Shown here in pieces: positions 17,196-41,487 of a DNA stretch of 41,901 nt. Origin of the DNA: an uncultured Porphyromonadaceae bacterium (lineage in GTDB: Bacteria > Bacteroidota > Bacteroidia > Bacteroidales > Muribaculaceae); NCBI GenBank assembly GCA_947573485.1, contig CANPGB010000029.1, positions 1 to 41,901 on the forward strand. Direction: 5' to 3'. The position numbers and the translations under genes were made by a program. A model generated the notes under the pieces. The model did not search any database. It was not told where the DNA came from and worked only from the letters and a program-made list of their open reading frames with translations. Position 1 is the stretch's first letter. Every line of letters starts with the position of its first letter.

Positions 17196-19143
17196 CAAGC
17201 TGAAATTTAAAGCCGACATCTACGTTTCTACGGTCTACCTCTTTTTAGTGGCCGTGCTCCTGCTGTGGCTCACCCGCTTCATCTTCATATGGTATAACAA
17301 CGACCTATGCGGCGAGCCGGGGTTTGGCCGGGCACTCGCGCTGAGCCTGCATGGCTTGCGCTACGACCTGTGTGCGGCAGCCTACTTCGACGCCCTCTTC
17401 ATTGCCATGCGCATAATACCGGCGCCGTGGGTATATAACACTGTATATCAGAAGGTATCACTATGGCTTTACCGCATATGCACATGGATTCTCCTGGCTA
17501 TAAATATCGGCGACACACCTTACTACCGCTTTACGGGCTCGCGCCTGCGGTGGAGCAACATACTCAACATTACCACCGACGGCGACATTGCCGCAATCAC
17601 GGCTCAATATGCCGGCTCTTACTGGTGGGCTTTTGCCGCCGCTATAGCCCTTGCCCTGCTTCTGGAGTGGTTTATAAGGCGTGTGCGGGTCGAGCGCCCC
17701 GCGCGCCCGATGAACTACGGCTTGCGTGTGGCAATATTCCTGCTGCTCGGCTTCGGCACCTTTGCCGCCATGCGCGGGCGCCTCGGCAGCGGCACCCCCC
17801 TCTCGATTCCCGACGCAGCCTTTGCCGTACGCAAAGCCCCTGAAATCAACGCCGTGCTCAACTCGCCTTTCTGCATACTCCGCTCACTTAACCGCAGCAA
17901 AAGCAACACCGAAGCCGTGCAGACGTTCTACTCCGACAGCGAGCTGGCCGCTCTGCGCACAAGCCTCCATGCAGGAGCCGATACCGATAGCCTTAATGGA
18001 CGCAACTTCGTGATTATCATCATAGAAAGCGGGGGTGCGGAGTGGGTTGACGCCCTTGCCAACCGCCCCGGCAAGCCTAAGCGTGGCTTGATGCCGTTCC
18101 TTGACTCCATAGCCGAACGGTCGACAGTTGTAGAGCATGTAATAGCCTGCAGCCGCTCGTCGTGCGGCGGAGCTACGGCAATCCTTGCCGACATCCCTGC
18201 CTTCGACCCGTTCTACTTCATGCTTTCGCCTTACAATAAGAATATTCTCGATACTCCGGCTCGACTTTTGGGCGAACGCGGCTACGACACAGCTTTTTAC
18301 TACGGCTGCAAGCACGGCTCGTTCAACATTGACCAGACTGCTTTCGCCGCCGGATACACAAAGATTACCGACCGTGACAAATATGGCAACGACGACGATT
18401 ACGACGGCATGTGGGGCATATTCGACTACCCTATGGCCGGGTATGTTGCCCGCGACCTCAGCAGCCTCAGCCAACCCTTCATCGCCGCATGGTTCACAAT
18501 ATCGGCTCACGGACCCTTCACCCTTCCCGAAGGCTTCGACACATCGCACTTCGTCCACCCCGAGCCCTCGCCCGAGCGCGGACTCGAATACACCGACCTC
18601 GCCCTGAGGCATTTCTTCGATACCGCCGCCACACAGCCATGGTACAGCAACACTACCTTCATAATCACCGCCGACCATGGCAACCGCGATTTCAAGGGCA
18701 CGATATATGACAACGACTACATCCGCAACCATATACCCCTTATAATATACACGCCCGACGGCAATACCGCACCACGCCGTGTGGCCGACCGTGTGGCATC
18801 GCAGCACGACATATCGCCTACCTTGCTGTCTCTCGCCGGCTATGGCTCACCTTACATAGCCCTCGGCTCCGATATTCTTGCCGACACTTTCGACGGATAT
18901 GGAATCGCCCGCACCGACGGAGGCCGCTATATAGTAGTTGGTCCGCGCTACACAATCTACACCTCGGCAAGCCTCGATTCAGTCGAGGAGGTCTACGAAA
19001 CCTCCGCTGACCCGACAATGGCAAGCATCACCTCCGACTACGACGCCACTGCTGTCGACGCCATGCTCACATGGGCAAAAGCCTTTATACAGGACTATAC
19101 CACACGTCTCAACAACGACCGGCTATCTATTGAGAATGAGTAA
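17188..19143 (+). CDS. LtaS-like membrane sulfatase-fold transferase
   Basis: Likely adds a phospho-group such as phosphoglycerol or phosphoethanolamine to an envelope glycan or lipid; the substrate is unknown. I start at the ATG at 17188 (MDSKLKFK, 651 residues), overlapping the menA stop. Four or five N-terminal membrane helices end near residue 195, followed by an alkaline-phosphatase-superfamily domain. Metal-site motifs are N273 FVIIIIESGG, HGPF in the ISAHGPFTLP segment, and TADHGN (D496, H497). The nucleophile region reads SRSSCGGAT (322-330), without the usual Gly-Lys-Thr context of LtaS; S325 or T330 could serve. It is followed by an 8-nt overlap with the next gene. Confidence 0.8.
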   Translation: MDSKLKFKADIYVSTVYLFLVAVLLLWLTRFIFIWYNNDLCGEPGFGRALALSLHGLRYDLCAAAYFDALFIAMRIIPAPWVYNTVYQKVSLWLYRICTWILLAINIGDTPYYRFTGSRLRWSNILNITTDGDIAAITAQYAGSYWWAFAAAIALALLLEWFIRRVRVERPARPMNYGLRVAIFLLLGFGTFAAMRGRLGSGTPLSIPDAAFAVRKAPEINAVLNSPFCILRSLNRSKSNTEAVQTFYSDSELAALRTSLHAGADTDSLNGRNFVIIIIESGGAEWVDALANRPGKPKRGLMPFLDSIAERSTVVEHVIACSRSSCGGATAILADIPAFDPFYFMLSPYNKNILDTPARLLGERGYDTAFYYGCKHGSFNIDQTAFAAGYTKITDRDKYGNDDDYDGMWGIFDYPMAGYVARDLSSLSQPFIAAWFTISAHGPFTLPEGFDTSHFVHPEPSPERGLEYTDLALRHFFDTAATQPWYSNTTFIITADHGNRDFKGTIYDNDYIRNHIPLIIYTPDGNTAPRRVADRVASQHDISPTLLSLAGYGSPYIALGSDILADTFDGYGIARTDGGRYIVVGPRYTIYTSASLDSVEEVYETSADPTMASITSDYDATAVDAMLTWAKAFIQDYTTRLNNDRLSIENE

Positions 19144-20620
19144 CAAGCGCCTCTACGTCTTCGCGGCCTTAGCCATAGCTCTCCTATACACCGTTTTGGA
19201 GTGTCTGCAGCCTTATGCTTACGACGACATCGGCTATCTGCGCCACTTCGACAACTTCAAGGCAGCCCCTTCGGTTGCGGCCTACTTCTCTGACCTGACA
19301 ACAGGCTTGAGCTGGCGTTTCAATTTCGACAACGCCCGTTTAGCCAACCAGTTGTTCGCGGCCTTGGTAGTACTGCCGCCACAGGTGCCTGCCGTTTTGA
19401 TAGGTGTAGCCCTCTTCCTCACCCTCTATTGGGGAGGACAGCTTGCCGGAGTGTGGGGTCGGAATATGGCAGGATTCGGGCTACTCTGCGCGGCGTATCT
19501 TTTTCTTGAGCCATGGTATGAATTTATGCTGTGCAAAGCTTTCGCTTTCAACTATGTGCTGTCGTCGGCCATAGCTACCGGGGTGTCGCTTGCAATACTC
19601 CATAAGCAGCCTCTTGCAATATGGGCGCTGCTCATAGGTTTTGTAGCCGGAATATGGCACGAGGCCTTTACGATGTGCATCTTAGGTGGTATCACAGGAA
19701 TTGTGTTAGTAAATCAGGCCTACCGCACGCGGCGCACCGCAGCATGGGCCGTTGGCCTTATTGCCGCTATAGTTTTTCTCGCGTCTGTGCCGGGAGCCCG
19801 GTACCGCGGCGCAGGCATGTTCATGCCCGAGAAGCTCTACCAACTGCAGTACGGGGTGCTCCTGGGCGCGCCCTTCTACCTCTTTACCGCCTGGGCGCTG
19901 ATTGTAACTTTAGTAAAGAAATTCAGAGCACGATTTTTCAGCACGGAGCTGGCCTTCATCTTCGGAGCAGCCCTCGGCGGTTGGGCCATATGGCGCTGCT
20001 TCATGACCGATCACCGCACCGCATGGCCTATGATTCTGTTCTCATGTCTTGGCCTTGCTTACCTCACAGCCCGAGCATTGAGACCCAATAATAAAGTTGC
20101 CAACGCCTTTGGGTTGTGCGCCATAGCCGCGACCGTACTTCAGCTGTGCCTGTGTGTGCCGCATGCCGCCACTATATACCGGCAGACCATGGCAGCCCGC
20201 GCCATTGCATCCGACGGTTCAAGCGGTCATTTCACACCCGAGATGAGCTCGCTAAATGCCCCTGCATACACACTAAACCGTGTAAACTACGATATGTATC
20301 TTATCGGCGGCTTCCCCATATTCAATGTCGTGCCTGCGGAGCTCCGCGATTTCAACCCCGTAAGGGCCACTGTGCTACCCTCATCTTCGCAGGCATGGCT
20401 CTATAAAGGCCTCATCGTGCTGCCTTTCAAGCATAGGGAAAGCGACGTTATCGACGCGCGGCTGCACTTCGGCTCGCGCACTCTCGACGCCGAATGTTTA
20501 CTCTCGCACTTCACCACTGAAGCCGGTCGCTTCACTTACATGGCTCCTTTCGGAGCATATCAAAGCGCCGTGCTGGGCGGTACTCTCAGCTCTATAGAAA
20601 TAAACGACTCCGACTTATGA
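19136..20620 (+). CDS. DUF6056-like polytopic membrane protein (first copy)
   Basis: Membrane protein of 494 residues with about ten hydrophobic helices. I use the ATG at 19136 (MSNKRLYVF), which overlaps the sulfatase stop as ATGAGTAA; a longer open frame upstream is antisense-like filler. An early loop carries acidic residues (YAYDDIGYLRHFDNF), and a mid-protein helix has His-Glu in AGIWHEAFTM. This layout fits the DUF6056 family, whose members resemble GT-C glycosyltransferases, so transfer of a lipid-linked sugar is a reasonable inference. The soluble C-terminal segment after about residue 390 is probably periplasmic. It is paralogous to the next gene. Confidence 0.65.
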   Translation: MSNKRLYVFAALAIALLYTVLECLQPYAYDDIGYLRHFDNFKAAPSVAAYFSDLTTGLSWRFNFDNARLANQLFAALVVLPPQVPAVLIGVALFLTLYWGGQLAGVWGRNMAGFGLLCAAYLFLEPWYEFMLCKAFAFNYVLSSAIATGVSLAILHKQPLAIWALLIGFVAGIWHEAFTMCILGGITGIVLVNQAYRTRRTAAWAVGLIAAIVFLASVPGARYRGAGMFMPEKLYQLQYGVLLGAPFYLFTAWALIVTLVKKFRARFFSTELAFIFGAALGGWAIWRCFMTDHRTAWPMILFSCLGLAYLTARALRPNNKVANAFGLCAIAATVLQLCLCVPHAATIYRQTMAARAIASDGSSGHFTPEMSSLNAPAYTLNRVNYDMYLIGGFPIFNVVPAELRDFNPVRATVLPSSSQAWLYKGLIVLPFKHRESDVIDARLHFGSRTLDAECLLSHFTTEAGRFTYMAPFGAYQSAVLGGTLSSIEINDSDL

Positions 20621-22125
20621 CCCTTACACGCAAAAACATAGCCTACAGCCTTCCGCTACTCCTGCTCGGGGTGCTGTTCTTCGTTCAGTATCTGCTCTAC
20701 CCTCCCGTGCTCGACGACGAATCGTTCCTCGGGCCGTTGAAGACCTATTTTAGCAATCCGACCCTCGACAATCTACTGTCGGGATGGTCGCAGTCAATGT
20801 CACACAGGTTTCAGAACGATAACGGACGTATTTTCAACCTTATCGCCACAGCCTTTCTCGTGATGCCCCGGTGGCTTTTCTCCCTGCTCATCACCTTCTG
20901 TGCCATGTCCATACTTTATCTGTGCTCCCGCATTGCAAGAGTGTGGCAGGCTCACTTTGCTGTATACTCGCTGATGACATTTCTTTTTGTCTTAGCCCTG
21001 CCATGGGCCGACCAAATGTTTACGGTAATGTTCTCGTTGAACTACATCCCCGCCTCGGCCTTGGCTCTGTATATCCTGCAACGATTCCTCACGGGGCGCC
21101 CAACAGCACCATGGCTCGCCTTAATTCTCGGTGTCGCAGTAAGCATATGCCACGAAGGTATAGGAGGCCCGCTGCTCCTGGGTATTCTTGTTGTTTGCGT
21201 ATTCTTCCCTCAATACCGCCGGTTGAGCAATTTCCTGCTCATGGCCGGGATATGCGCGGGTATTTTCTACCTTCTGTTCCTCGTGCCCGGCACCCGCAAC
21301 CGCGTATCAGGCAACGACTTTCTCCACGGTTTTCTGATTTTCTTCCGCTACCTGCACAACATCATACTCTTCATAGTGTTTGCAGGGCTGACAATCATTG
21401 CGAGGTTTAACAACAAGTGGTGGACTTCAATTAACAAACCCACACTTACAGCACTCTTCGCCACATGTGCCGGAGGCATCGGGCTATGGATGCTGTGGAT
21501 GACAGGTGCCCGCCTTGCATGGTGGGTCGATGTAGCCTCACTTGCAGGTATAGGCTTTGTGCTCGCACCCGTAGCCACGCACCTCAGCAAACGCCCCTTC
21601 GCTATAGCCGGAGCTGCTCTTATAGCCGTGGCGGCACTTCAATTAGCAGCATGCCTGCCATACACGGCCCGCATGAAAAAAGACTACACGACAATCCGCG
21701 AACTCTCGGCGCAGCAAGGCCGGACCAACGTTTTCTACGACGCTTTCGAGCCGTGGGATACCCCGTGGTACGTGTTGGGGAAAACTAATTTCAACGGATT
21801 GAGGGCGTGGAACTGGTCGACATACCGCGCGGTGCCTACTATCCTAAGCGATTTCACCCCCGACTCGGCACAAAAAATCGACAGCAACATCGGCAACGCC
21901 TACATTGTAGACGGTACCGACATTGTAGTCGATTTCACAGATTTGCCTGTTCAACCCGAGGGCAATATATGGCTGAATCTCATGATTGACGGAAAGATGT
22001 ACAGCATCGACACCCTGCCTATCGAGTTCACCGCAAGCGACGGGCAGCGGTGGCTCTATCTGCGGCCGGCGATTCTGAGTTTCCGCATCAAGTGGCGCAA
22101 TATCAGCGGGGTGTATCAGCCTTAG
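20617..22125 (+). CDS. DUF6056-like polytopic membrane protein (second copy)
   Basis: Second copy, 502 residues, whose ATG overlaps the previous stop (ATGA). It shares the pattern of the first: an acidic first loop (LDDESFLGPLKTYF), a HRFQNDNGRIFN segment resembling the other copy's WRFNFDNARLAN, and a His-Glu helix (SICHEGIGG). About ten helices are followed by a soluble C-terminal domain of about 130 residues rich in beta-type sequence. Tandem duplication followed by divergence is the simplest history. The stop overlaps the convergent transporter gene by 23 nt, leaving no room for a terminator. Confidence 0.65.
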   Translation: MTLTRKNIAYSLPLLLLGVLFFVQYLLYPPVLDDESFLGPLKTYFSNPTLDNLLSGWSQSMSHRFQNDNGRIFNLIATAFLVMPRWLFSLLITFCAMSILYLCSRIARVWQAHFAVYSLMTFLFVLALPWADQMFTVMFSLNYIPASALALYILQRFLTGRPTAPWLALILGVAVSICHEGIGGPLLLGILVVCVFFPQYRRLSNFLLMAGICAGIFYLLFLVPGTRNRVSGNDFLHGFLIFFRYLHNIILFIVFAGLTIIARFNNKWWTSINKPTLTALFATCAGGIGLWMLWMTGARLAWWVDVASLAGIGFVLAPVATHLSKRPFAIAGAALIAVAALQLAACLPYTARMKKDYTTIRELSAQQGRTNVFYDAFEPWDTPWYVLGKTNFNGLRAWNWSTYRAVPTILSDFTPDSAQKIDSNIGNAYIVDGTDIVVDFTDLPVQPEGNIWLNLMIDGKMYSIDTLPIEFTASDGQRWLYLRPAILSFRIKWRNISGVYQP

Positions 22126-23455
22126 CGGTGGCTTTTGCAGGCTCTTCAACCGGTAACTCGTAAGAGTTGGGGTCGGCTTCCATAATAAAGTTCTTGCGGG
22201 TGAAGATTGCCACCACGAGTACCACAACGATTACGCAGCCGTTGAAAACGAAAGCGAAGTTGGGGTCGCCCTGGGCATCGAAAAGCCGCTTTGCACCGCT
22301 TATTATGAAAGGCACCAGAGAGATGCCCACATAGTTGCAGGTGAGCAGGTAAGAGAAGTAGGCCGTCGATTTGGCCGTGTTAGGAGCGATGTAACTTGTC
22401 TTATCGTAAATCACAGGCTGGATAACACCGTAGCCGAGGCCCATGATAAAGACGCCGAGCACATATGTCCAGTAGGTGTGCAACAGTCCGACAGCAAACA
22501 GACCTACGATGCAGAAGAGTATAGCCACCTGCATGGTGTATTTGCCCACCACCGAAATTATCTTCGAGAGGAAGAAGCCCGAGAGTGTAGCTGCAGTGAA
22601 GAACATTGCCGTAGCCACGCCCACATCACCCGTCGAGAGGTGATAGTGGTTCATAACAAAGGGCAGGTAGTATGAAACGACCTCGGTGCCGTAGGTTGCC
22701 ATGAAGTAGAGAGCCATGGCGCCGATAAGGAGCATGAGCGAGAGACGGCCCTGGAAGTGGAAGTTGACATTGGCAGGACGCTTGGCAGCCACCGATTTGC
22801 GTATATCGTCGTCCGACGGGCGGGCAGGCTCCTTGCGGGGCTGCATTGGCGGAGGCGTCACCTCAATCTTGTGCTTGTCAATGTAAGCCGTTGACATAAA
22901 CGGGATGAGACACAGCGGGATAATGGGCACCATATACACAATGAATGAGAGGTGCCAGCTTATCGAGGCAATCCAGCCAACGAAAAGAGTGGCGAAAATA
23001 ACCGTGAAGTTGGAGATTCCCGACTTCATGCCCAACTGACGCGTGCGCGCCTTACCCACAAAGTTCTGCGAGATAAGACTGGCGGCAAGAGGTATCACAA
23101 GGCCGCAGCCAACGCCTAAAAGGCAGCTCAGGAGTATAAGTTGCACCATGGTGGTGGCGAAGAAATAAAGCACACCGGTGAGGGTATAGAGTGCAAGACC
23201 GAGGCCGAGTATAAAAATCTGGTTCTTGGGGGTACAGATTTTTCCCGACCCTAATATAAAGGGAATGGTAACGAGGTTGGGGAGAACTGTAAGGAGCTGA
23301 ATCTCGAGCTCGGTGACATCTTTGAACACATGGTCGAGCTTGCCCATGATAGGCGATATGGCCAAGCCGGGCAGATTCACTGTCAGCGATATCGAGAGGA
23401 TAGCCAATAGCGAAATCAGAGGTATTTTTCCGCAACCGGAGTCTACGTATTTCAT
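22103..23455 (-). CDS. MFS transporter, divergent from the porin operon
   Basis: Major facilitator superfamily permease of 450 residues with about twelve helices and a charged central loop (residues about 205-235). The N-terminal helix block LPGLAISPIMGKL is nearly the same as IPGLAISPIMGDL in the plus-strand transporter at 25213, so the two are paralogues. A GKARTRQLGMKSG loop follows helix 4 or 5. It is transcribed away from the porin gene across a 379-nt region with its own TAGCTTTG element. Substrate cannot be read from sequence; import or product export for the neighbouring hydrolase locus is inferred. Confidence 0.85.
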   Translation of the reverse strand: MKYVDSGCGKIPLISLLAILSISLTVNLPGLAISPIMGKLDHVFKDVTELEIQLLTVLPNLVTIPFILGSGKICTPKNQIFILGLGLALYTLTGVLYFFATTMVQLILLSCLLGVGCGLVIPLAASLISQNFVGKARTRQLGMKSGISNFTVIFATLFVGWIASISWHLSFIVYMVPIIPLCLIPFMSTAYIDKHKIEVTPPPMQPRKEPARPSDDDIRKSVAAKRPANVNFHFQGRLSLMLLIGAMALYFMATYGTEVVSYYLPFVMNHYHLSTGDVGVATAMFFTAATLSGFFLSKIISVVGKYTMQVAILFCIVGLFAVGLLHTYWTYVLGVFIMGLGYGVIQPVIYDKTSYIAPNTAKSTAYFSYLLTCNYVGISLVPFIISGAKRLFDAQGDPNFAFVFNGCVIVVVLVVAIFTRKNFIMEADPNSYELPVEEPAKATAKADTPR

Positions 23456-23556
23456 AGATAGGAGGAAAATAAAAGTTGAACTTAATAAGTGGTGTACCCG
23501 GAGCAGAAAATTTATGCGCTCTTACATCTTCTAACGCACTCAGGCGCGCCGAAGTT

Positions 23557-23564
23557 CAAAGCTA
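23557..23564 (-). promoter_or_regulatory. Promoter element for the divergent MFS gene
   Basis: The minus strand reads TAGCTTTG, an exact TAnnTTTG match, about 100 nt upstream of the MFS start at 23455. No good -33 element is seen. A palindrome at 23580-23599 lies immediately upstream of it. Confidence 0.5.
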
Positions 23565-23579
23565 ACGATTTTGCAGCGA

Positions 23580-23599
23580 TTTTTACGATATAGTAAAAA
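23580..23599. promoter_or_regulatory. Palindrome in the divergent MFS-porin intergenic region
   Basis: TTTTTAC (23580-23586) and GTAAAAA (23593-23599) form a perfect 7-bp inverted repeat around a 6-nt centre. It sits about 15 nt upstream of the MFS -7 element, where a repressor or activator could bind. The rest of 23456-23834 is AT-rich. It contains one more small hairpin (TCTCTT/AAGAGA, 23719-23734) and no convincing TAnnTTTG promoter for the porin. Confidence 0.4.
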
Positions 23600-23834
23600 A
23601 AATCAATCGCAAACCCGCGTCTGGGGGCTTGTAGGCGCGATTATGAAATTTTTGCTTAAAAACACTTTAACCATTTGAGCTTCCCATATGTTATTCTTCC
23701 GTACCCCGAATAGAAAAATCTCTTCAAAAAGAGACTATGTCGCACCCTGTAAATTAACATTTATAACAAAATTCAAATTTACAACTTAGTTTTTTCATAC
23801 AACACTTTCAACTCCCACAAAATCACTATTTATT

Positions 23835-25172
23835 ATGAGAACGACGGTAACAGCCTTATTGATAGCAGCCTTAGGCTGCGCGCAGGGTGCGCAGGGAGCA
23901 ACATCGCCTGCCGACAGCCTCGGCGGCGACGGAAACCGCATAGAGTTCAAGCGCACATCACCCGAAGTCAAGGAAATACTAAAACGCAGCCGCCCCGAAG
24001 ACCCTCACTCGGTGCCTGTACCCAACTTTGTGGTGAAATCTTCCAACAACAATTTCATTATGGCCATAGGCGGCATGATCAACCCTATTATGGGCGGAGA
24101 TATAGGCAATAACCTCTACAAACAGTCGGGGGCCGGTATCAGCTTCGTAACCAACCAGATACCCGTACCGGCAAAGAGCGGCCACAAAGGCGACTTCTAC
24201 ATCAACCCGCTTAACGCCACTGTCGACCTTCAGATTACCGGCCTTGCCAACACTCCCAACGAAATCTCGGGATACGTGAAAATCGGTACCAACGGCATCA
24301 ACAGCAACGTTGTGCTGCAGCGAGCATATATCACCTACCGCCACTTCCAGGCAGGTATGCAACTAACGCTCGCGCAGGACGCCTATGCTTGCCAGCCTCC
24401 GACAATCGACCCCGAGGGTCCCTCGGGCTGCCTTTCGGCCGTGGCCTACGAAGTGGCATATAAATCGAAGAGCTACAACGGCTTCCGCTTCGCTGCCGCT
24501 CTCGATGTGCCTTCGTTCTACTCTTCGAACGGCTACTACCGCGGTCGCGACTATCCGAAATACGACGGCAAGCAAGTCGACATCTCGGCCGACCAGGTTA
24601 TCCCCGACATCCCTGCGTGGGTTGAATACAGCTTCTCGCAGTGGAACCGTATCCGCCTCACCGGCCTGCTCCGCAACTTCCACTACCGCGATGTAGTTGC
24701 CGGCAAGACCCGCTACGCTCCCGGCTATGGAGTGATGCTCTCCGGCAACATCAACCCTGTGAAGCCGCTCATCGTATACTACCAGCTTGCTTACGGCAAA
24801 GGCATAGGAGCCTACCTGCAGGACCTTGCAGGGCAGCAGTTCTCCTACACTCCCGATGACTCGCGCCCCGGCCGCATGACACCTTCGGCGATGATGGGTG
24901 CCAACATAGGCATAAGCTACAATGCCACCTCGCGACTGCAGTTCAACGCCATGTTCTCGGAGAGCCGTATATGGGGCGTGAAGGACTACGCCACCGCTCC
25001 CGACTCTGAATGCAACTACAAGTATGCTCTCTACGCCGCCGTGAACTGCTTCTACAATATCACCCCCTACCTCCAATGGGGCATAGAATACATCTGGGGC
25101 CACAAGCAGACCTGGGACATGGGCGGAGCACACGACAGCCGCCTGCAGACTCAGATAGCCTTTACCTTCTGA
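23835..25172 (+). CDS. Outer-membrane porin, DcaP-like
   Basis: Secreted beta-barrel protein of 445 residues. A signal peptide (about residues 1-21, MRTTVTALLIAALGCAQGAQG) precedes a polar segment and then alternating beta strands, ending in a terminal Phe (QIAFTF) as expected for an outer-membrane barrel. The overall pattern resembles DcaP-type trimeric porins, which pass small anionic molecules, but that assignment is from pattern only. It leads an apparent operon: an MFS permease starts 40 nt downstream, then two hydrolases. It probably admits the substrate through the outer membrane. Confidence 0.7.
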   Translation: MRTTVTALLIAALGCAQGAQGATSPADSLGGDGNRIEFKRTSPEVKEILKRSRPEDPHSVPVPNFVVKSSNNNFIMAIGGMINPIMGGDIGNNLYKQSGAGISFVTNQIPVPAKSGHKGDFYINPLNATVDLQITGLANTPNEISGYVKIGTNGINSNVVLQRAYITYRHFQAGMQLTLAQDAYACQPPTIDPEGPSGCLSAVAYEVAYKSKSYNGFRFAAALDVPSFYSSNGYYRGRDYPKYDGKQVDISADQVIPDIPAWVEYSFSQWNRIRLTGLLRNFHYRDVVAGKTRYAPGYGVMLSGNINPVKPLIVYYQLAYGKGIGAYLQDLAGQQFSYTPDDSRPGRMTPSAMMGANIGISYNATSRLQFNAMFSESRIWGVKDYATAPDSECNYKYALYAAVNCFYNITPYLQWGIEYIWGHKQTWDMGGAHDSRLQTQIAFTF

Positions 25173-25212
25173 CAACAAACAAATTACATAAACAACATAA
25201 AAACTTAGAGTT

Positions 25213-26535
25213 ATGAAAGGCATCAACACCGGCTACGGCACAAAGCTGCCTTACTGGGCCCTGGTCAACCTCTACGTGATATACATTATCACGTCGATTC
25301 CGGGTCTGGCAATCTCGCCTATCATGGGCGACCTCACCCGCATATTCCCGGGCACAAGTCAGCTCGAGACCCAGTTCCTTACGCTGGGCCCGAATATCGC
25401 TGCCATCCCCTTCGTGTTCCTCGGAGGCTGGATAGGCACGAAGTTCAACAACATGAAGCTCCTTAACTGGACCTGCGTTTTCTACGGCATCGGCGGCGCC
25501 CTCTTCTTCATAGCGCCCAACATGCTCACCCTCATCATCCTGAGCTTTGCCATAGGCATAGCCGCCGGCATTATCTCGCCGCTTGCGAGCGCCTTCGTCT
25601 CCGACCTTTTCAACGGCGAGCAGCGCACCAAGCAGTACGGTTATACCTCTGCCGTGCTTAACCTCGTGCTCATGGCATCGACCATCGCCACCGGTTACCT
25701 TGCAAAAGTAAACTGGCGTCTTCCCTTCCTTATCTACCTGTTGCCTTTCGTGCCTCTGTTCTTCGCTGCCAAATTCAAGAATTACATCAAAGAGCCGGCC
25801 GACATCCGCAAAGGCGACGCCAAGAAAATCAACGTTCCCAAGGTGCACTACAAGTTCTCTCAGAACGTGAACATGCCTATGCTCATCCGCTATTGCGCCT
25901 ACTATTTCTTCATTACCCTCGTAATTGCGGCAATCAGCCTCTACGTGCCTTTCCGCTTCACCAACTCGGCGGTTGCGGGCGACCTCACCTCGATACTCTT
26001 CCTCGGTATCATGGCCTCGGGCTTCACCCTTAACTTCGCCCTGAAGTTCCTCAAGAACCACGTGGCCATAGCCGTTATGCTCTTCGTGCTCATAGGCTTC
26101 GTGCTCATGGTAATCTCCGACGCCGCCGTTGTGGTTGGCATAGGCATCCTCATCGCCTCTTACTTCTACGGCGTAGCCCAGCCTTACTACTACGACCGCC
26201 TGTCGATTGTCTCGACCCGCGTTGCCCTTACCCTGACCATGGCATGGTTCGCCGTAATGGACTCCATAGGCAACGTTGTGGCTCCCTTTATCATCGACGG
26301 TATTGCCAAGGTTCTCGGTCACCCCACCTCCAAAGACCCGATGATGGCTTTCCGCATCTGCATGTGGATGTGCTTCGCAGCCCTCGCTATCGTGGTTGTA
26401 CGCAAGGTGATAGTATCGGCACGTAGCCGTCACGGCCACACCGAAGAAGCTCCCGTGCGTCTGGGCGACTCCGTGAACCCCATGCCCGCAAAGAAAACTG
26501 CAGCCGACGCCGCCAAGAGCGCCTCTCAGAAATAA
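25213..26535 (+). CDS. MFS transporter in the porin-hydrolase operon
   Basis: Major facilitator superfamily permease, 440 residues, about twelve helices. It is paralogous to the divergent transporter (shared SIPGLAISPIMGDL start and a similar central loop near 195-215). A GEQRTKQYGYTSAV loop corresponds to GKARTRQLGMKSG in the other copy. It lies 40 nt after the porin and 30 nt before the first hydrolase, with no terminator between. Because both hydrolases lack signal peptides, I infer that this carrier imports their substrate into the cytoplasm. The C-terminal tail is Ala/Lys-rich. Confidence 0.85.
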   Translation: MKGINTGYGTKLPYWALVNLYVIYIITSIPGLAISPIMGDLTRIFPGTSQLETQFLTLGPNIAAIPFVFLGGWIGTKFNNMKLLNWTCVFYGIGGALFFIAPNMLTLIILSFAIGIAAGIISPLASAFVSDLFNGEQRTKQYGYTSAVLNLVLMASTIATGYLAKVNWRLPFLIYLLPFVPLFFAAKFKNYIKEPADIRKGDAKKINVPKVHYKFSQNVNMPMLIRYCAYYFFITLVIAAISLYVPFRFTNSAVAGDLTSILFLGIMASGFTLNFALKFLKNHVAIAVMLFVLIGFVLMVISDAAVVVGIGILIASYFYGVAQPYYYDRLSIVSTRVALTLTMAWFAVMDSIGNVVAPFIIDGIAKVLGHPTSKDPMMAFRICMWMCFAALAIVVVRKVIVSARSRHGHTEEAPVRLGDSVNPMPAKKTAADAAKSASQK

Positions 26536-26565
26536 AACTCCCCTATAACCAAAACGTTAACTAAC

Positions 26566-28215
26566 ATGTACAAGCCAAATTTAAAGAACACAGAAGCCAC
26601 CGAGTTCGTGCTCAACGAGTACACCCGAGGCTATGCGCAGTGCATCGACAACAACTGGAACTACGCCGTCTATGCGCAGGACCCGTCGGTGAGCATCTAC
26701 CAGAATGAGTACAATGCCGGGTATGTGCAGGGCAAGGTGCAGACCAATCGTGTGATAAAAGCCACGCGTAACAATACCTGGAAGTGGTATGTGCTCGACG
26801 AAGGCCCCGGTGCCGACTCCACTCAGATTCCCGAAGGTGGCGTGCAGATAGCGCGCGACGCCCTCGTAGAGAACTACAACTACCTCACGGGGTGGGCCGA
26901 GAAGAATGCCTCCGACGAAAAGACCATAGGCATCATAAGGCTCATGTTCCGTATGCTCGGCATCTACGACGGCGCCGCCGACAAGCCTGCCCGCACTAAC
27001 GTGACTTTCGACGACCTCAAACTTGCCAATATGGACCCCGAGGATGCTCAGATGCACACCGGCGACGAGCCCCTCACCTTCATCGACATCTACTTCATCA
27101 ACGCTCAAATGGACCTTTGGGACGCTATCGCCAAGCCCCTCGGCGTAGCCTTCAACAAGGTAGCCAAAGACGATGAGGAGAACACAATCCACGACGGTTG
27201 CCACGACCTGCGCCTCAAACCCGGCCGGTGCTCGGGCTTCGTAAAGCGTCTCGACAACGGCGACATTATCTGGACTCACACCAGCTGGTGCTGCCTCATG
27301 GCCCAGACCTGTGCCATGACCTATGTAATCGGCGACGACTTCCTCACCCAGAACTCTTTCTGCCCGGGACAGTTCGGCTCAAACACCGACTACGGCTTCA
27401 ACAAGCACGGCATAGGTTTCAACGAAACCACCGAGACCTATTTCTACAATGAATCGAAGACCGTGGGTGTATGGCTAACATGGCGTGCCGCGGCAGCCGA
27501 GAACTTCGCCCGCTCTATCGACGAGTTCTACGAGTACTGCAAAATCGACAACACGGGCACATACCTCAACGCCTATATGCTGGTGGATGCTTTCCGCGGC
27601 GAGTTCGGCATGATCGATATGAGCTATGCCCGCTTCGCACTCTTCAAGAGCGACGGCAGCACCCTCACCGTAACCGACTCTACCGGCTATGAGCCTACGT
27701 TCCTCGACTGGGATCACCACCTGGTTACCACCGACCATGTAATTGGTTGCAACATACCGAGCTACAAGCGTATATGGCGCGAGCTCCAGACTATCGACGG
27801 AGCACCTAAACGTCGTTTCCAGCTCTACCGCAACCTCCCCAACGTCTCCGACATCGACTCTGCCAAAGAGCTCATTACCTTCAACTCGAGCTACGAGCCT
27901 ATCTCTATCGCAGGCCGTTGGGACAAGGGCTACGGTACCTCTGAGTTCCTCCGCTACCAGCCTCACGGCTCTATCGACGCCAAAGCCTTCAGCACCGCCG
28001 AAATCAGGAAGGTGCTCGGCTCACTCTCCTACCGCCCCTCGCTCACGGGCAAGGCAACTTCGTTCTGGATGAAATACGGCACTCCGAGCATCGACGGCAC
28101 ACCGTTCATATGGTCGCAGTCGGTATTCGCTCCCTATAAGGAGCCCGAGGAAGTCGACTGCATCCCCGACGCTATCGACGGCCGCTGGAACCGTGTAAAA
28201 CTGTTCATGGAATAA
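26566..28215 (+). CDS. Phospholipase-B-like Ntn-hydrolase (first copy)
   Basis: Likely an acyl-ester or amide hydrolase of the phospholipase B-like (lamina ancestor) family; 549 residues and no signal peptide, so cytoplasmic. The candidate N-terminal nucleophile after self-cleavage is C222 in GRCSGFVKRL, matching the Cys-Ser-Ala-Leu site of animal PLBD proteins. Other family blocks are YNAGYVQGKVQ near 49-59, NTGTYLNAYMLVD, and a C-terminal GSIDAK region ending in a Pro-Phe-x-Trp-Ser motif (GTPFIWSQSVF). A WTHTSWCC segment follows the nucleophile, where PLBD has AHNTW. It is a tandem paralogue of the next gene, 12 nt upstream of it. The substrate is unknown. Confidence 0.75.
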   Translation: MYKPNLKNTEATEFVLNEYTRGYAQCIDNNWNYAVYAQDPSVSIYQNEYNAGYVQGKVQTNRVIKATRNNTWKWYVLDEGPGADSTQIPEGGVQIARDALVENYNYLTGWAEKNASDEKTIGIIRLMFRMLGIYDGAADKPARTNVTFDDLKLANMDPEDAQMHTGDEPLTFIDIYFINAQMDLWDAIAKPLGVAFNKVAKDDEENTIHDGCHDLRLKPGRCSGFVKRLDNGDIIWTHTSWCCLMAQTCAMTYVIGDDFLTQNSFCPGQFGSNTDYGFNKHGIGFNETTETYFYNESKTVGVWLTWRAAAAENFARSIDEFYEYCKIDNTGTYLNAYMLVDAFRGEFGMIDMSYARFALFKSDGSTLTVTDSTGYEPTFLDWDHHLVTTDHVIGCNIPSYKRIWRELQTIDGAPKRRFQLYRNLPNVSDIDSAKELITFNSSYEPISIAGRWDKGYGTSEFLRYQPHGSIDAKAFSTAEIRKVLGSLSYRPSLTGKATSFWMKYGTPSIDGTPFIWSQSVFAPYKEPEEVDCIPDAIDGRWNRVKLFME

Positions 28216-28227
28216 AAAACTACTGTT

Positions 28228-29862
28228 ATGGCTAAATATACACCCAATTTCAAGAATACTCCCGCGACAGAATACGTCCTCGACGAGTACACAAAAGGCT
28301 ACGCCCAGTGTGTGGACAACTGCTGGAACTACGCTTTCTATGCTCAGAACCCCGCCGTGAGCATATACCAGAACGAATACAACGCCGGATATGTGCAGGG
28401 CAAGGTGCAGGGCAACGATCTTCTGCGCGCAACCCGCAACAACTCGTGGAAAAACTTCCTCGTAGGCGCAACCCCGCAGGACGCCATCTCGGTTGAAGTA
28501 AAGCCCGAGTACCTCACTGCCTGCACCGAGACCCTCGTCACCAACTACAACTACACCTACCAGTGGGTGCTCGAGCGCCGCGATGATAATCTCGTGAAAG
28601 GTATCATAAGGCTCATGTTCCGCATGTTAGGTATCTACGAAGGAGCTGCCGGGCTGCCCAACCGCACATCGGTTGCTATCGAAGACCTTGCCCCCGCAGC
28701 ACGTGCCGAAGGTCAGCTCACACTCGGCGCCGGCGACACGCCCCTCACTTTCCTCGACGTTTACTTCCTCAACACCCAGTATGACCTCTTCGATGCCGTA
28801 GGCGACAAGATTGGCCTCGTAATGGGCTACGGAACAGCCAAGAAGAAAGACGGCAAGAGCGAGAAACCCGACCACTGCACCGCTTTCACCAAGATGATGC
28901 CCGACGGCACCATCTACTGGACTCACAACTCGTGGTGCTGCTTCTGGGCTCAGTCGTGCGCCGTGACTTATGTGATAGGCGACGACTTCGTGACGCAGAA
29001 CGCCAACTGCCAGGGCCAGTTCGGCTCAAATACCGACTTCGGCTTCAACGGCAAGGGCATAGGTTTCAACGAGACCACGCACGTCGACCTCTACGACAAG
29101 ACCCGCGTGGAAGGCATATGGCTCGCATGGCGTTCGGCAGCCGCCGAGCAGTTTGCAGGCTCTATCAACGAGTTCTACGACTACTGCAAGCTCGACAACA
29201 CCGGCACCTACCTCAACGGTTACCAGATTGTCGACTCCAATACGGGCGAAATCGGTCTGCTCGACATGAGTTACAACCGTTTCGTGCTCTTTACGTGCAA
29301 CGGCAAGGAAATCAAGATAATCGACTCCACCGGTTATGTTCCCAACCACCTGGACTATGACCACCACCTCATCAGCCCGACACACATCTTCGGTGTCAAC
29401 CAGCCTGTATCGTGGTGGGTAGGCTATGAGCTCGAGAGCATGAATCTACGCCCCATGCGACGCAACCAGCTTTGGGCGCGCCTCCCGACGGTTCAGGATA
29501 TAGAGACGGCCAAGGCGCTCGTAACCTACACCGAAGACCGCGAGCCGCTCTCTATCTACGGGCGCTGGGATCTCGGTTACGGCACTACCGAACTGCCGCG
29601 CACACGCCCCGACGGCTCGGTGGACGCCAAAGCCTGTTCTACCGAAATAATCAAGGATGTGCTCTCCTCGCTCAGCCGCAAACCGGCTGTCGACGGCAAG
29701 GCTACATCGTTCTGGATGAAATTCGGTACTGCATCTATCAATCAGCTCCCCTTTATCTGGAGCCGCTCGCAGTTCAAAGACCTCAAGCAGGACGAGAGCG
29801 TGGACTTCGTGCCCGACGCCCTCGACGGCCGCTGGAACCGCGTGAAGATGTTTATGGAATAG
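28228..29862 (+). CDS. Phospholipase-B-like Ntn-hydrolase (second copy)
   Basis: Second hydrolase of the pair, 544 residues, no signal peptide. The candidate nucleophile is C217 in DHCTAFTKMM, followed by WTHNSWCCFW and VIGDDFVTQN. Downstream blocks are NTGTYLNGYQIVD, RRNQLWARLPTVQDIETAKA, DGSVDAK and LPFIWSRSQF, which follow the order seen in PLBD proteins. Long stretches match the first copy, but the segment between about 75 and 115 and the region just before the nucleophile differ, so the substrates may differ. It is the last gene of the operon, followed 41 nt later by a strong terminator. Confidence 0.75.
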   Translation: MAKYTPNFKNTPATEYVLDEYTKGYAQCVDNCWNYAFYAQNPAVSIYQNEYNAGYVQGKVQGNDLLRATRNNSWKNFLVGATPQDAISVEVKPEYLTACTETLVTNYNYTYQWVLERRDDNLVKGIIRLMFRMLGIYEGAAGLPNRTSVAIEDLAPAARAEGQLTLGAGDTPLTFLDVYFLNTQYDLFDAVGDKIGLVMGYGTAKKKDGKSEKPDHCTAFTKMMPDGTIYWTHNSWCCFWAQSCAVTYVIGDDFVTQNANCQGQFGSNTDFGFNGKGIGFNETTHVDLYDKTRVEGIWLAWRSAAAEQFAGSINEFYDYCKLDNTGTYLNGYQIVDSNTGEIGLLDMSYNRFVLFTCNGKEIKIIDSTGYVPNHLDYDHHLISPTHIFGVNQPVSWWVGYELESMNLRPMRRNQLWARLPTVQDIETAKALVTYTEDREPLSIYGRWDLGYGTTELPRTRPDGSVDAKACSTEIIKDVLSSLSRKPAVDGKATSFWMKFGTASINQLPFIWSRSQFKDLKQDESVDFVPDALDGRWNRVKMFME

Positions 29863-29959: not shown

Positions 29960-31934
29960 TTATTTCACGAATACTTTGCTTACAGAAGCACCCTGGCGGC
30001 GGATGTAAACGCCGTTTGCGGGTTCGGCAACGCGTACGCCCTGGAGGTTGAAGTATTCAACGGGAGCGTTTGCGTCAACGGCAACTTCTTCAACACCGTT
30101 GGAAATCTTGGTGACGCTGAGCACGGGAGTCTCGTTCTCGAAAGATACTACCATGCTGTATACACCCGATTCCATCATGAACGACTTGGCGCTCGATGCG
30201 TTGATATTCACTGCATAGAGAGTGAGGGGAGCGGTAGCGTTGTTGCTCTCGGTAAATTCAATGGGAGTGTCGGCCTCGGCTGCGCCCCAACGGTTGCCAC
30301 CGTTTACAGCGCCCCAGTCAGCGCCAATAAATTCGCTGAAGCTGAAGTAGCCTTTGCCTTCTGCGTTGGCACCGTTCACGTTAATGCTCTCGATAGAGAA
30401 CTCATTCCCGTTCTTGGCCATTGCAACGCCGTCGGCTGTGCTCCAGTTGGTGTCGTTCACATTACCAAGTACATAGAGAGTCTCGGGAACATAGGCGGGA
30501 GTGGGGTCAATGGTGATGTCGTCAACCTTGGTGAGGGTAACGGTCATTTCCTTGAAGTCGACAGTTACATTGTAGATTGCCTGAGCTGCCTTGAAGGCGT
30601 GTTCGCTTTCTACGAAAGTAACGGGAGTACCGGCGATAGCGGGGGTATCGTTGACCTCAGCACCGTAGCGGGTCATGTCGGCCCACTCGAGGTTAGCGGC
30701 GGTTGTGAACGAGAAGTAGGTATCCTCGGTGCCGTCGGCGCCGGGCATTTCTACATTTTCAATAGTGAAGGTGTAGCCGTCCTTTGTCATGAGAAGGGCG
30801 TTCTCCGGGAGCCAGTTGCAAAGGTTACCAACGATATAGAGAGCTTCGGGAGCTTCAACAACGGGGTCGGGGTCTTCACCTTCTTCGCTCTTGGCAATCT
30901 TCACGGTCATTGTGGTGAGGTCAAGGGTAATGTCGAGCTTCACGGGAGCCTCTACCATGAACGACTGGTCACCCGCCATTATAGCGTTGGCTTCGGTGAA
31001 TGAGGGAGCGAAGTCGGCTTCGGTGGCACCGTAGCGAGCGCCGATAGAAGCCCAGTCGCCGGCAGTGCCTTCGTTCTGGCAGAAAGAGAAGTAGCCGTAT
31101 GCGGTGCCCATTTCAGTACCGATTTCCACTTCTTTGCCTTCAAAGATGCCGTCGGCAGTTTTGGTAAGGGCGAGAACGTTGGTGGGGTTCCAGCTTGCGC
31201 CGTTCACGTTACCGATAACGTACATCGTTTCAGGGAACACTTCCTTACCGGATACGGTGAGGACACCGGTGTCGGCGTTCTTGTCGAGAACGAAAGAGAA
31301 GGTGTATTCACCCGAGCCGATGGAGAAAGCGTTGCCCGACTGCGAAGCAGTGTACTCAGTACCAACAGCAACGGCGATGTCATTGCCACCTGTACCGTAG
31401 ATGTTGACACCTGCTTTCATCTTGAAGTAGCTTGTGGCGGCAGTAAGATTGTACTTGCCTTCCCACACGTTCTCGGTACCGGCTTTGAGGGTGAGAGGAT
31501 AGGTTGTGAGATCCTCATTCCAACCGCTGCCGAAGTCACCCACGAGGTAAACGGTGTCATACTCGTTTTCCTGCGAAGCACCTACTGCTTTAAGAGTCTT
31601 GGTGTTATAGTCGAAAGTGATAGTAGCTTTTGTCCAGGTGCCGTCGGTCTTGAGATTGCCGCCACCCGAAGAGAGCACATATTCTTTATCGAGAGCGAGT
31701 GCGCCGTAGCTTCCGCCCCAGTTATCGTTACCCCAGGTAGCATCGGCAATTTTAAATTCGCCGGCAAAGTTCTCTACGTCAATAGAGTAAGTGTTGGTTG
31801 CCTCATCATAGGCGAGTTGCCATTGCGGCGTAGAACCCCAGCCATTCATACCACCTCGTATATAGAGGGGTGGGGGCTGCATTTGCGGCCACGGCCACAA
31901 GCAGCGAAACAAGAAGTAAGTAAAATTTTTTCAT
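29960..31934 (-). CDS. Secreted SusE/F-like multidomain protein, frameshifted near the start
   Basis: A cell-surface or secreted binding protein of about 657 residues if one base is removed. Five SusE/F-like modules are seen, opening with LYIRGGMNGWG, VYLVGDFGSGWN, MYVIGNVNGASWN, LYIVGNLCNWLPE and LYVLGNVNDTNW. The C-terminus (EYFNLQGVRVAEPANGVYI, then a Lys-rich end) resembles type IX secretion sorting domains. The signal peptide MKKFYLLLVSLLVAVAANA starts at 31934 but is in another frame. The frames meet in the run at 31867-31876 (GGGGTGGGGG on plus), where removing one G gives ANA-APPLYIRGG. The main open frame alone (from 31912) starts with an implausible N-terminus. No lipobox Cys. Glycan binding is inferred. 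Confidence 0.75.
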
Positions 31935-39986: not shown

Positions 39987-40132
39987 CAATAACCCGGAAG
40001 ACGGGAACAAGGGCACACAAGCCCGGTGGACAGATTTGGCTGCTTGCAACCACTTGAAAAAATGCTAAAATCGCCCGACGAGGCTCGGCTACTGCTGTGC
40101 GTCGTGTCGGTTTTAGGTTTTTGTTCGCCGCG
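39987..40132 (+). other. tRNA-to-metK spacer with several small hairpins
   Basis: This gene-free stretch follows the tRNA. It holds short stems (CCCG/CGGG near 39994-40006, GGGC/GCCC near 40012-40025, and CCGAC/GTCGG near 40076-40110) and the palindrome CGCCGCGGCG at 40126-40135. Any transcript from the tRNA promoter would include it up to the terminator at 40133. I recognise no riboswitch class, in particular no SAM aptamer, and no convincing coding frame. Confidence 0.35.
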
Positions 40133-40197: not shown

Positions 40198-41487
40198 ATG
40201 AATCATCTCTTCACCTCAGAATCGGTGTCTGAAGGGCATCCCGACAAGGTTGCCGACCAGATTTCCGACGCCGTGCTCGACGAATTTCTCGCACGCGACC
40301 CGCAGTCAAAAGTAGCTTGCGAGACCCTCGTAACCACAGGTCAGGTAGTGGTTGCGGGCGAGATAAAAAGCTCGGCATACATCGACCTTCAGGAAACCGC
40401 CCGCCGCGTTATCAACGAGATAGGCTATAACCGCTCAGAGCTCCGCTTCGACGGCAACTCGTGCGGCGTGCTCCTGGCAGTGCATGAGCAGAGCGCCGAC
40501 ATCAACCGTGGCGTAGAGCGCGAGCAGGCCGAGAACCAGGGTGCCGGCGACCAGGGCATGATGTTCGGCTACGCCACCAACGAGACACCCCTCTACATAC
40601 CCCTCACCCTCGCCCTCAGCCACGGCCTCCTCATGACCCTGGCCGACATACGCCGCGAGGGCGTCGATATGACCTATCTCCGCCCCGACGCCAAGAGCCA
40701 GGTAACAGTGGAATACGATGAGCAGAACCGCCCCGTGCGTATCGACACCATAGTGGTATCGACCCAGCACGACGAGTTTATCGACGCCGCCGCGCAGGGC
40801 ATATCGCAGGAAGAGGCCGACCGCCGCATGCTTGACATCATCCGCCGCGACGTTGAGAATATACTCATACCCCGCACGATAGCCACGCTGCCCGACGACA
40901 TCGCCGAAATGGTGCGCAACAGCAAGTTCAAGCTCCATGTGAACCCCACCGGCAAGTTTGTTATCGGCGGCCCCCACGGCGATACAGGTCTCACAGGCCG
41001 CAAGATTATAGTTGACACCTACGGCGGGCACGGCGCACACGGCGGTGGTGCGTTCTCCGGCAAAGACCCCAGCAAGGTCGACCGCTCGGCAGCCTACGCC
41101 GCACGCCATATCGCCAAAAACCTCGTAGCCGCCGGAGTTGCCGACCGCGCCCTGGTGCAGGTGGCCTACGCCATAGGCGTGGCAGAGCCCGTGAGCATCA
41201 ACGTGAACACGTACGGCACGGCGAAAGTAGCGCTCAGCGACGCCGAAATCGCCGCACGCGTCAGCGAGCTCTTCGACATGCGCCCCTTCGCTATCGAGCA
41301 GCGCCTCAAGCTCCGCAACCCCATATACCGCGAGACAGCATCCTACGGCCATGTGGGCCGCATACCCCGCACAGTGACCAAAACCTTCACCTCGCACTAC
41401 GAAGAGCCTATAACCCGCACTGTAGAGCTCTTTACATGGGAGAAACTCGATGCGGTGGACGCCGTGAAGAAAGCGTTCTTCGCCTGA
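40198..41487 (+). CDS. metK: S-adenosylmethionine synthetase
   Basis: Makes S-adenosylmethionine from methionine and ATP; 429 residues. The N-terminal signature [20 protein letters not shown] is intact. It is followed by the [15 protein letters not shown] block, and later by the family signature [20 protein letters not shown] around residue 277. The C-terminal end is the usual MetK domain. It has its own promoter element just upstream, separate from the tRNA transcript, and is followed by a strong terminator. Confidence 0.98.

What the first reader, a model, noticed from the sequence alone, without database searches (positions are those of the whole stretch)
22103..29862. Candidate uptake-and-hydrolysis system built on tandem phospholipase-B-like enzymes
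Seen: MFS permease divergent from porin-MFS-hydrolase-hydrolase; the two permeases are paralogues, the two hydrolases are paralogues, and the hydrolases lack signal peptides. Known: PLB-like proteins are mostly studied as eukaryotic lysosomal Ntn-hydrolases with uncertain substrates. Inference: a porin admits, an MFS carrier imports and two cytoplasmic enzymes cleave an ester- or amide-linked compound from the gut, with the second permease importing a related compound or exporting a product. Substrate candidates are N-acyl amino acids, N-acyl amines, conjugated bile acids or lysophospholipid head groups; the sequence does not choose among them.
Basis: partly seen in the sequence, partly recalled or inferred. 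Interest (0 to 1): 0.75.

Follow-up and report, generated by a model that had tools for sequence, protein, structure and literature searches.

The report
Mobile cytoplasmic PLB-like amidase uptake cassette
A five-gene cassette scattered among Muribaculaceae-type bacteria joins an outer-membrane channel and two transporters to two intracellular enzymes related to animal lysosomal 'phospholipase B-like' proteins, and its relatives suggest that it imports and splits small amino-acid-like amides rather than phospholipids.

Summary
Both hydrolases pass the Pfam Phospholip_B cut-off; PLB1 has a predicted Ntn fold (best solved match PLBD2); the nucleophile Cys and HxxW are kept in 38 of 38 aligned copies. 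They lack signal peptides, unlike 10 of 10 distant relatives. The gene order recurs in 21 loci from 20 genomes with different neighbours, and PLB identities do not follow AtpA: a portable cassette (PLB genes in 16 of 397 family genomes).

The porin is DcaP-like. Relatives of the permeases lie beside glutaminase, glutamate decarboxylase, GadC-like antiporters or a PS-decarboxylase-like enzyme in 24 of 40 other loci (0 of 20 random stretches). One cassette is followed by glutaminase and asparaginase; in another family PLB plus MFS-B sits beside porin, MFS-A and glutamate decarboxylase. Best reading: import and cytoplasmic hydrolysis of a small, probably amino-acid-type amide, possibly tied to pH or nitrogen balance. 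No assay exists; the substrate is unproven.

The parts
22103..23455 (-). MFS-A, MFS_1 permease, divergent from the rest; related to permeases beside GadB/glutaminase/GadC-like genes and DcaP-like porins in other genomes of the family
23456..23834 (.). divergent intergenic region (379 bp), presumed promoters of both sides; no Rfam match; no conserved sequence evident by eye among 13 such regions
23835..25172 (+). DcaP-like outer-membrane porin with a signal-peptide-like N-terminus
25213..26535 (+). MFS-B, MFS_1 permease of a clade seen here only with PLB genes
26566..28215 (+). PLB1, Phospholip_B-family Ntn hydrolase without signal peptide; predicted nucleophile Cys222
27229..27231 (+). codon of PLB1 Cys222, predicted N-terminal nucleophile; HxxW at His238-Trp241 (27277-27288)
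28228..29862 (+). PLB2, paralogous hydrolase without signal peptide; predicted nucleophile Cys217
28876..28878 (+). codon of PLB2 Cys217, predicted N-terminal nucleophile; HxxW at 28924-28935

Best explanation
A portable nutrient/pH module: a DcaP-like porin lets a small, probably anionic or zwitterionic amide through the outer membrane; MFS permeases carry it across the inner membrane and/or exchange it for a product; two cytoplasmic, self-maturing Cys-Ntn hydrolases (PLB1, PLB2) cleave the amide bond, giving an amino acid plus an acid, amine or ammonia. It works like the glutaminase-MFS-asparaginase(-porin) and GadB-glutaminase-GadC-MFS(-porin) modules of the same bacterial family, with the PLB pair in the place of the deamidase. 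Shown: conserved unit, predicted Ntn fold and nucleophile, no signal peptide, identities that do not follow a housekeeping protein, shared permease and porin families. Inferred: self-maturation, transport direction, amide rather than ester, amino-acid-type substrate, role in nitrogen or acid balance.
For: Conserved unit: PLB1-PLB2 tandem in 19 of 19 loci that cover both, MFS-B directly upstream of PLB1 in 19 of 19, porin upstream of MFS-B in 16 of 17, divergent MFS-A in 11 of 13; among 30 immediate neighbours of the cassette only one pair of loci (L007/L008) shares one. Spread: PLB genes in 16 of 397 family genomes, 3 of 30 genera; window genome vs G176: AtpA 91%, PLB1/2 75/76%; vs G361 of another genus: AtpA 81%, PLB1/2 80/85%. 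Ntn: PLB1 model pLDDT 76, pTM 0.86; Foldseek best 3fgw/3fbx (PLBD2, E 9e-15, TM 0.64), then isopenicillin N acyltransferase, acid ceramidase, NAAA; the profile aligns the conserved Cys (222) to residue 1 of the mature chain of PLBD1 4bwc_B. Cytoplasmic: 46 of 46 clade members without, 10 of 10 distant relatives with, a hydrophobic N-terminus. Context: 24 of 40 other loci of related permeases have GadC-like, PS-decarboxylase-like, GadB or glutaminase neighbours, 0 of 20 random stretches; six loci are glutaminase-MFS-asparaginase units, three of them with a divergent DcaP-like porin; the eight closest MFS-A rows join, at 98% SH-aLRT, two permeases beside porin and GadB (L112, L151), one beside a porin (L152) and one alone; L019 carries MFS-B-PLB1-PLB2-glutaminase-asparaginase; in another family L201 has porin-MFS-A-GadB beside PLB and MFS-B, with no glutaminase seen in the 16-kb stretch. 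The PLBD2 structure paper also suggests non-peptide amides (PMC2739207, abstract and passages).
Against: No assay, no identified substrate. Direct links of the cassette to glutaminase/asparaginase (1 of 21 loci) and of PLB to GadB (1 of 6 stretches in the other family) are few. MFS-B is a separate long-branched clade, so the argument runs mainly through MFS-A and the porin. 14 of the 40 related permeases stand alone, and three of eleven cassette MFS-A genes (L003, L011, L021) come from a branch of stand-alone ones. Two loci lack MFS-A and one lacks the porin. Neighbours shared with the deamidation modules are barely above control, 3 of 75 vs 1 of 238 (p 0.044), and a looser count showed no excess. 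Closest solved permeases are drug exporters. PLB2 also has a weak, below-cut-off hit to C45 acyltransferase/hydrolases (E 0.00026).
Confidence: 0.45

Rival explanations
1. Scavenging of host or dietary N-acyl conjugates (N-acyl amines, long-chain N-acyl amino acids, conjugated bile acids): the hydrolases free the amine or amino acid, and the acyl part is exported or activated.
For: Foldseek matches after PLBD2 are acyl-amide enzymes: isopenicillin N acyltransferase, acid ceramidase, NAAA, and weakly B. theta bile salt hydrolase (E 0.0044). One locus (L006) has an acyl-CoA ligase-like gene next to MFS-A.
Against: A general-porin-type channel is a poor route for long hydrophobic acyl chains (inference); no bile-salt-hydrolase family among the Pfam or NCBIfam hits; a random control stretch also matched the L006 ligase.
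Confidence: 0.22
2. Peptide use: the unit imports and trims short peptides or peptide-like isopeptides.
For: In the other family, dipeptidyl-peptidase Dpp5 genes lie next to the porin in 2 of 6 stretches; a C69 dipeptidase is among the Foldseek hits (E 0.0015).
Against: No such gene noticed beside the Muribaculaceae-type loci, but only three of their flanking genes were run through a family search, so this is weak.
Confidence: 0.15
3. Detoxification cassette: the Ntn hydrolases inactivate an amide-containing toxin or antibiotic and the MFS permeases are exporters.
For: Closest solved permeases are NorA, EfpA and an 'antiseptic resistance protein'; Ntn kin include penicillin V acylase (2iwm, E 0.033); a related permease (L106) follows an RND pump.
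Against: A dedicated porin would let more toxin in; the Gly-Pro of antiporter motif C (motif recalled) is missing in 61 of 61 related permeases looked at; neighbours of related permeases are often amino-acid enzymes.
Confidence: 0.1
4. Cytoplasmic phospholipase/lysophospholipase handling membrane lipids or glycerophospho head groups.
For: Family name and Pfam model Phospholip_B.
Against: No signal peptide in 46 of 46; linked to small-solute transporters; the PLBD2 authors favour amides; a review calls PLBD1/2 substrates elusive (PMC9140057, passages).
Confidence: 0.06

Closest known systems
PLBD1/PLBD2 (MEROPS C95, Pfam PF04916), animal lysosomal Ntn hydrolases
   Same: Pfam family, predicted fold, nucleophile Cys with HxxW, long N-terminal part before the Cys
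   Different: Bacterial, no signal peptide, tandem paralogues fixed next to transporters; 17% identity in the Foldseek alignment
Secreted PF04916 proteins of other Bacteroidota (L061-L070)
   Same: Same Pfam family where tested (2 of 10 run); Cys and His conserved in the 5 aligned
   Different: They carry signal-peptide-like N-termini (10 of 10); no porin or MFS neighbour was evident by eye in the roughly 1 kb flanks
Glutaminase-dependent acid resistance / GAD system (glsA-gadB-gadC) of Bacteroides and enteric bacteria (PMC8082179, PMC6250119; passages seen)
   Same: Cytoplasmic amide hydrolase plus transporter; permease and porin families shared with GAD modules of the window's family
   Different: No glutaminase, GadB or GadC in the window's cassette; hydrolase is of the Ntn/PLB family; two MFS permeases. 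The word 'porin' occurs in neither paper's main text; PMC8082179 names a potassium channel
DcaP porin of Acinetobacter (6eus, PF19577)
   Same: Best structural match, E 9.4e-20, TM 0.81 on the target; profile E 0.0011
   Different: 15% identity; the window porin itself has no Pfam hit
Bile salt hydrolase / penicillin V acylase
   Same: Ntn fold, Cys nucleophile
   Different: Much weaker structural match (best E 0.0044) and no such family among the hits
C45 autoproteolytic acyltransferase/hydrolase (NF040521)
   Same: PLB2 hits it at E 0.00026; isopenicillin N acyltransferase is the third Foldseek hit
   Different: 20.5 bits against a cut-off of 85; PLB1 has no hit

Membership tests
Phospholip_B / PLB-like (PF04916) | Pfam score above gathering cut-off | tested here: met
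   60.1 and 48.8 bits vs 27
Phospholip_B / PLB-like (PF04916) | Ntn (abba) fold | tested here: met
   Predicted model of PLB1 only, pTM 0.86; top hits 3fgw, 3fbx; several stretches, mostly in the C-terminal third, below pLDDT 50
Phospholip_B / PLB-like (PF04916) | nucleophile Cys and HxxW (C249, H266, W269 of PLBD2) | tested here: met
   38 of 38 rows of A2 and 8 of 8 of the second family; PLBD2 numbering
Phospholip_B / PLB-like (PF04916) | oxyanion-hole residues of PLBD2 (T330, N432, and R463 as the review adds) | tested here: inconclusive
   ETT 287-289 and R416 invariant in 51 of 51, N396 invariant in 38 of 38 of A2; equivalence to PLBD2 positions is my inference, not a superposition
Phospholip_B / PLB-like (PF04916) | autoproteolytic maturation | not testable with these tools
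   needs expressed protein
Phospholip_B / PLB-like (PF04916) | secreted or lysosomal targeting | tested here: not met
   no hydrophobic N-terminus in PLB1/PLB2 (start codons chosen as in the window)
Glutaminase/GAD acid-resistance module | glutaminase, GadB and GadC in the unit | tested here: not met
   none in the window's cassette; glutaminase beside it in L019 only, GadB beside PLB in L201 only
Glutaminase/GAD acid-resistance module | related permease and porin families in the versions found in the window's family | tested here: met
   24 of 40 permease loci have such enzymes or antiporters, several with a porin
DcaP porin | PF19577 match and porin barrel | tested here: inconclusive
   7 of 15 relatives match PF19577 at E<=5, best 0.00092; the window protein does not; barrel model closest to 6eus
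DHA1/DHA2 drug:H+ antiporter | motif C (Gly-Pro in helix 5; recalled) | tested here: not met
   absent in 11 of 11 MFS-A, 14 of 14 MFS-B and 36 of 36 related rows
Bile salt hydrolase / PVA | family profile match | tested here: not met
   no such family among Pfam or NCBIfam hits at E<=0.1

The most novel reading that the evidence does not exclude
A new amide-dependent acid-resistance or nitrogen system in which a pair of cytoplasmic PLB-like Ntn amidases replaces glutaminase: it imports a glutamate- or aspartate-type conjugate through a DcaP-like porin and an MFS carrier, hydrolyses it inside, and can hand the freed amino acid to glutamate decarboxylase. It would give a natural substrate class for the orphan PLBD family.
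Probability: 0.2. Interest if true: 0.78.

Novelty: new variant of a known kind. Interest (0 to 1): 0.58.

Why it matters
A 2022 review calls the substrates of PLBD1 and PLBD2 elusive (PMC9140057, passages). A bacterial branch that is soluble, duplicated and tied to its own porin and carriers offers a simple way to find a substrate class for the family by expression, transport and growth tests. It also points to a set of exchangeable porin-MFS-enzyme modules for amino-acid deamidation and decarboxylation in Muribaculaceae, a group that is common in rodent guts (recalled).

Tried and rejected
Regulatory element: Rfam gave only a tRNA and SAM-II in the window, none in the cassette; divergent intergenic regions were compared by eye only and look unconserved. 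Mobile carrier: no PLB1 match in plasmids or phages and none confirmed in viral contigs; how the cassette moves is unknown. Empty site: the left neighbour (20617-22125) is itself variable in the genus (match in 13 of 26 genomes, best outside the window's own 29% identity), so I could not define a clean empty site. Shared integration sites with deamidation modules: a looser count gave 4 and 6 of 20 cassette sources sharing a flank with the two sets of 20 module loci, against 6 of 20 with 20 random stretches, i.e. no excess; direct neighbours 3 of 75 vs 1 of 238, p 0.044: left as a hint only. Correlation of PLB with AtpA identities is weak but not absent (Pearson 0.38 and 0.23); PLB1-PLB2 0.58. 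Papers: no paper holds both 'Muribaculaceae' and 'phospholipase B'; three papers hold two or more of the PF04916/Bacteroidetes terms, none on gut bacteria by title and abstract start; of 64 papers I saw 20 listed. Absence from print is claimed only for these searches of an open-access library. DcaP's anion preference, antiporter motif C and the name QacA are recalled, not read.

My ORF caller keeps the longest non-overlapping frames and hid PLB1 of L012 and the MFS of L113 behind antisense frames; the first was restored, and L113 was counted as GadC-adjacent from the MFS place but is in no tree. In alignment A3 the row of L009 was cut at its N-terminus by my coordinates. Some PLB frames extend further upstream than the start I used. 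The first MFS tree (61 rows) left out five context rows by a length filter; one search put them back trimmed (66 rows) and changed the nearest kin of MFS-A from stand-alone permeases to ones mostly beside porins. The 40 permease contexts cover 42 of about 64 non-cassette places by my own count of the listing; the others were not read. The 20 random stretches come from 5 of those genomes. Trees are 'quick' ones with SH-aLRT only and several long branches. L011 contains 304 Ns, 5 of them where the porin is missing.
Full report
What is there. Gaps between the four co-directional genes are 40, 30 and 12 bases, so they probably form one transcript. Both hydrolases score above the Pfam Phospholip_B cut-off and are 56% identical; the permeases are 30% identical. 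The genome holds no other PF04916 match, and the only matches to MFS-B in it are the two cassette permeases.

A conserved and moving unit. A scan of one genome per species for PLB relatives gave 21 loci in 20 genomes, all Bacteroidales metagenome assemblies, titled Muribaculaceae, Paramuribaculum, Porphyromonadaceae, Bacteroides or Bacteroidales. Counting only loci whose contig covers the place in question: PLB1-PLB2 tandem 19 of 19, MFS-B directly upstream of PLB1 19 of 19, porin upstream of MFS-B 16 of 17 (not in L011), divergent MFS-A 11 of 13 (not in L005 and L017). Of 30 immediate neighbours of the cassette, only those of L007 and L008 match each other. A profile of 38 PLB proteins finds the genes in 16 of 397 genomes of the family, in 3 of 30 genera. 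PLB identity does not follow the housekeeping protein AtpA: the window genome and G176 share 91% of AtpA but 75/76% of PLB1/PLB2, while G361 of another genus shares 81% of AtpA and 80/85% of PLB1/PLB2; G361 and G391 share 96% of AtpA and 81/73% of the PLBs. I read this as transfer of the unit between genera. PLB1 and PLB2 form one clade each (SH-aLRT 100 and 98), so the duplication is older than the spread, and both keep their catalytic residues in every copy looked at, which suggests that they are not redundant. MFS-A has two origins: three loci (L003, L011, L021) carry an MFS-A from a branch of otherwise stand-alone permeases.

The enzymes. PLB1's model (pLDDT 76, pTM 0.86) matches mouse PLBD2 best (3fgw, E 9e-15, TM 0.64), then isopenicillin N acyltransferase, acid ceramidase, NAAA and, weakly, bile salt hydrolase: the Ntn superfamily, on the amide-cleaving side. 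A profile search aligns the conserved Cys with residue 1 of the mature chain of bovine PLBD1 (4bwc_B, E 0.00023). PLBD2's nucleophile Cys249 and its His266 and Trp269 correspond to Cys222, His238 and Trp241, kept in 38 of 38 copies and in 8 of 8 copies of a second family. Twenty-five positions are invariant over 51 sequences that include five distant secreted relatives, among them Cys222, His238, ETT 287-289 and Arg416. Hydrophobicity at the N-terminus separates two kinds: 46 of 46 members of this clade have none, 10 of 10 distant relatives from other Bacteroidota have a signal-like one. So this branch appears to be cytoplasmic, which makes membrane phospholipid an unlikely substrate and fits the link with carriers.

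The transporters. The porin models as a general porin whose closest solved kin is DcaP (6eus, E 9.4e-20); a profile of 15 porins finds 6eus at E 0.0011. From recall, DcaP favours negatively charged small molecules. Both permeases are nearest to exporters among solved structures: NorA and EfpA for MFS-B, an 'antiseptic resistance protein' and NorA for MFS-A. But the Gly-Pro motif of helix 5 that marks such antiporters (recalled) is absent from 61 of 61 related permeases. The direction of transport is thus open; import by at least one is inferred from the porin and the cytoplasmic enzymes.

What the relatives do. Permeases related to MFS-B were found in 51 of 198 genomes of the family, the window's own included. 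I read 40 of their loci outside the cassette. In 24 of 40 the permease is near a GadC-like antiporter, a phosphatidylserine-decarboxylase-like protein, glutamate decarboxylase or glutaminase; in 14 none of these families nor a porin is near; in 2 only a porin; 0 of 20 random stretches from five of these genomes held any of these families (family names from searches of representatives). The MFS tree sorts largely by neighbour type (12 changes against 43 in shuffles). Six loci are glutaminase-MFS-asparaginase units (L155, L160, L164, L166, L167, L168), three of them with a porin facing away, as in the window. L112 has two such permeases, a porin, GadB, glutaminase and a GadC-like protein together, and its porin-side permease, with that of L151 (GadB and porin), that of L152 (porin) and one stand-alone one, is nearest kin to the eight closest MFS-A genes (12 rows, SH-aLRT 98). 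Most directly, cassette locus L019 continues after PLB2 with a glutaminase and an asparaginase on the same strand; the asparaginase is 86-88% identical to that of five of the six units, 70% to the sixth.

A second family. In a search of 198 genomes of the order, only one other family (two genomes) held full-length relatives; one more genome had a partial weak hit. A search of 393 genomes of the order added none; 2 of 5 genomes of that family have them. Each of the two has four copies, without signal-like N-termini. Of the six stretches read, two carry MFS-B-PLB-PLB (L199, L202), one carries MFS-B, PLB, porin and a Dpp5 peptidase gene (L198), two carry PLB without these transporters in the stretch (L200, L203), and L201 carries a Dpp5 gene, then porin, an MFS-A relative and glutamate decarboxylase on one strand, meeting PLB on the other, with MFS-B divergent from PLB. 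No glutaminase was seen in the L201 stretch, so PLB may stand there where a hydrolase that feeds the decarboxylase would be expected. This is one locus and only suggestive.

Mechanism. The simplest reading is an import-and-hydrolyse module for a small amide, with the PLB pair in the role that glutaminase and asparaginase have in sister modules. In Bacteroides the glutaminase-GadB pair is said to scavenge two protons, one through ammonia (PMC8082179, passages), so a pH function is possible here as well; nitrogen or carbon supply is equally possible. Why two paralogues are kept is unknown: two substrates, or a hetero-oligomer.

What is known and what is new. The enzymes are members of the PLB-like family by score, fold and nucleophile, but not by targeting. 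The module as a whole is not a member of the glutaminase/GAD systems, since none of their enzymes is in the window's cassette; it resembles them in plan and shares permease and porin families. In the listings of three searches of an open-access library I saw no paper on PF04916 proteins of gut Bacteroidales (20 of 64 listed, 3 of 3, none found); that is no proof of absence. Overall: a new variant of a known kind, with a substrate class that can now be tested.

Noticed in passing
40020-40078: SAM-II riboswitch (54.5 bits, gathering 44) just upstream of an S-adenosylmethionine-synthetase-like ORF (40198-41487, named by eye) and after a tRNA-Met at 39913.
   Followed up: no
L100, L101, L102, L105, L109, L114, L115, L116, L119, L150, L169: Recurrent module in the window's family: one to three phosphatidylserine-decarboxylase-like proteins, a GadC-like antiporter, an MFS permease and, in 6 of these 11, a DcaP-like porin; looks like a pyruvoyl-type amino-acid decarboxylation system rather than lipid synthesis.
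   Followed up: partly
L155, L160, L164, L166, L167, L168: Compact glutaminase-MFS-asparaginase units, three with a divergent DcaP-like porin.
   Followed up: partly
L061-L070: Secreted-type PF04916 relatives in 9 genomes of the phylum besides the window's own (395 searched); contexts beyond about 1 kb not read.
   Followed up: no
18938-22125: Two tandem, distantly related membrane-type proteins (27% identity); the second has no Pfam hit and is variable even within the genus.
   Followed up: no
29960-31912: Large minus-strand protein without Pfam hit, with a repeated 'YIVGN/YVLGN...W' pattern resembling starch-binding SusE/F-type outer-membrane proteins (impression only).
   Followed up: no
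L198 11419-13509; L201 333-2420: Dpp5-type dipeptidyl-peptidase genes without an evident signal peptide beside the porin.
   Followed up: partly
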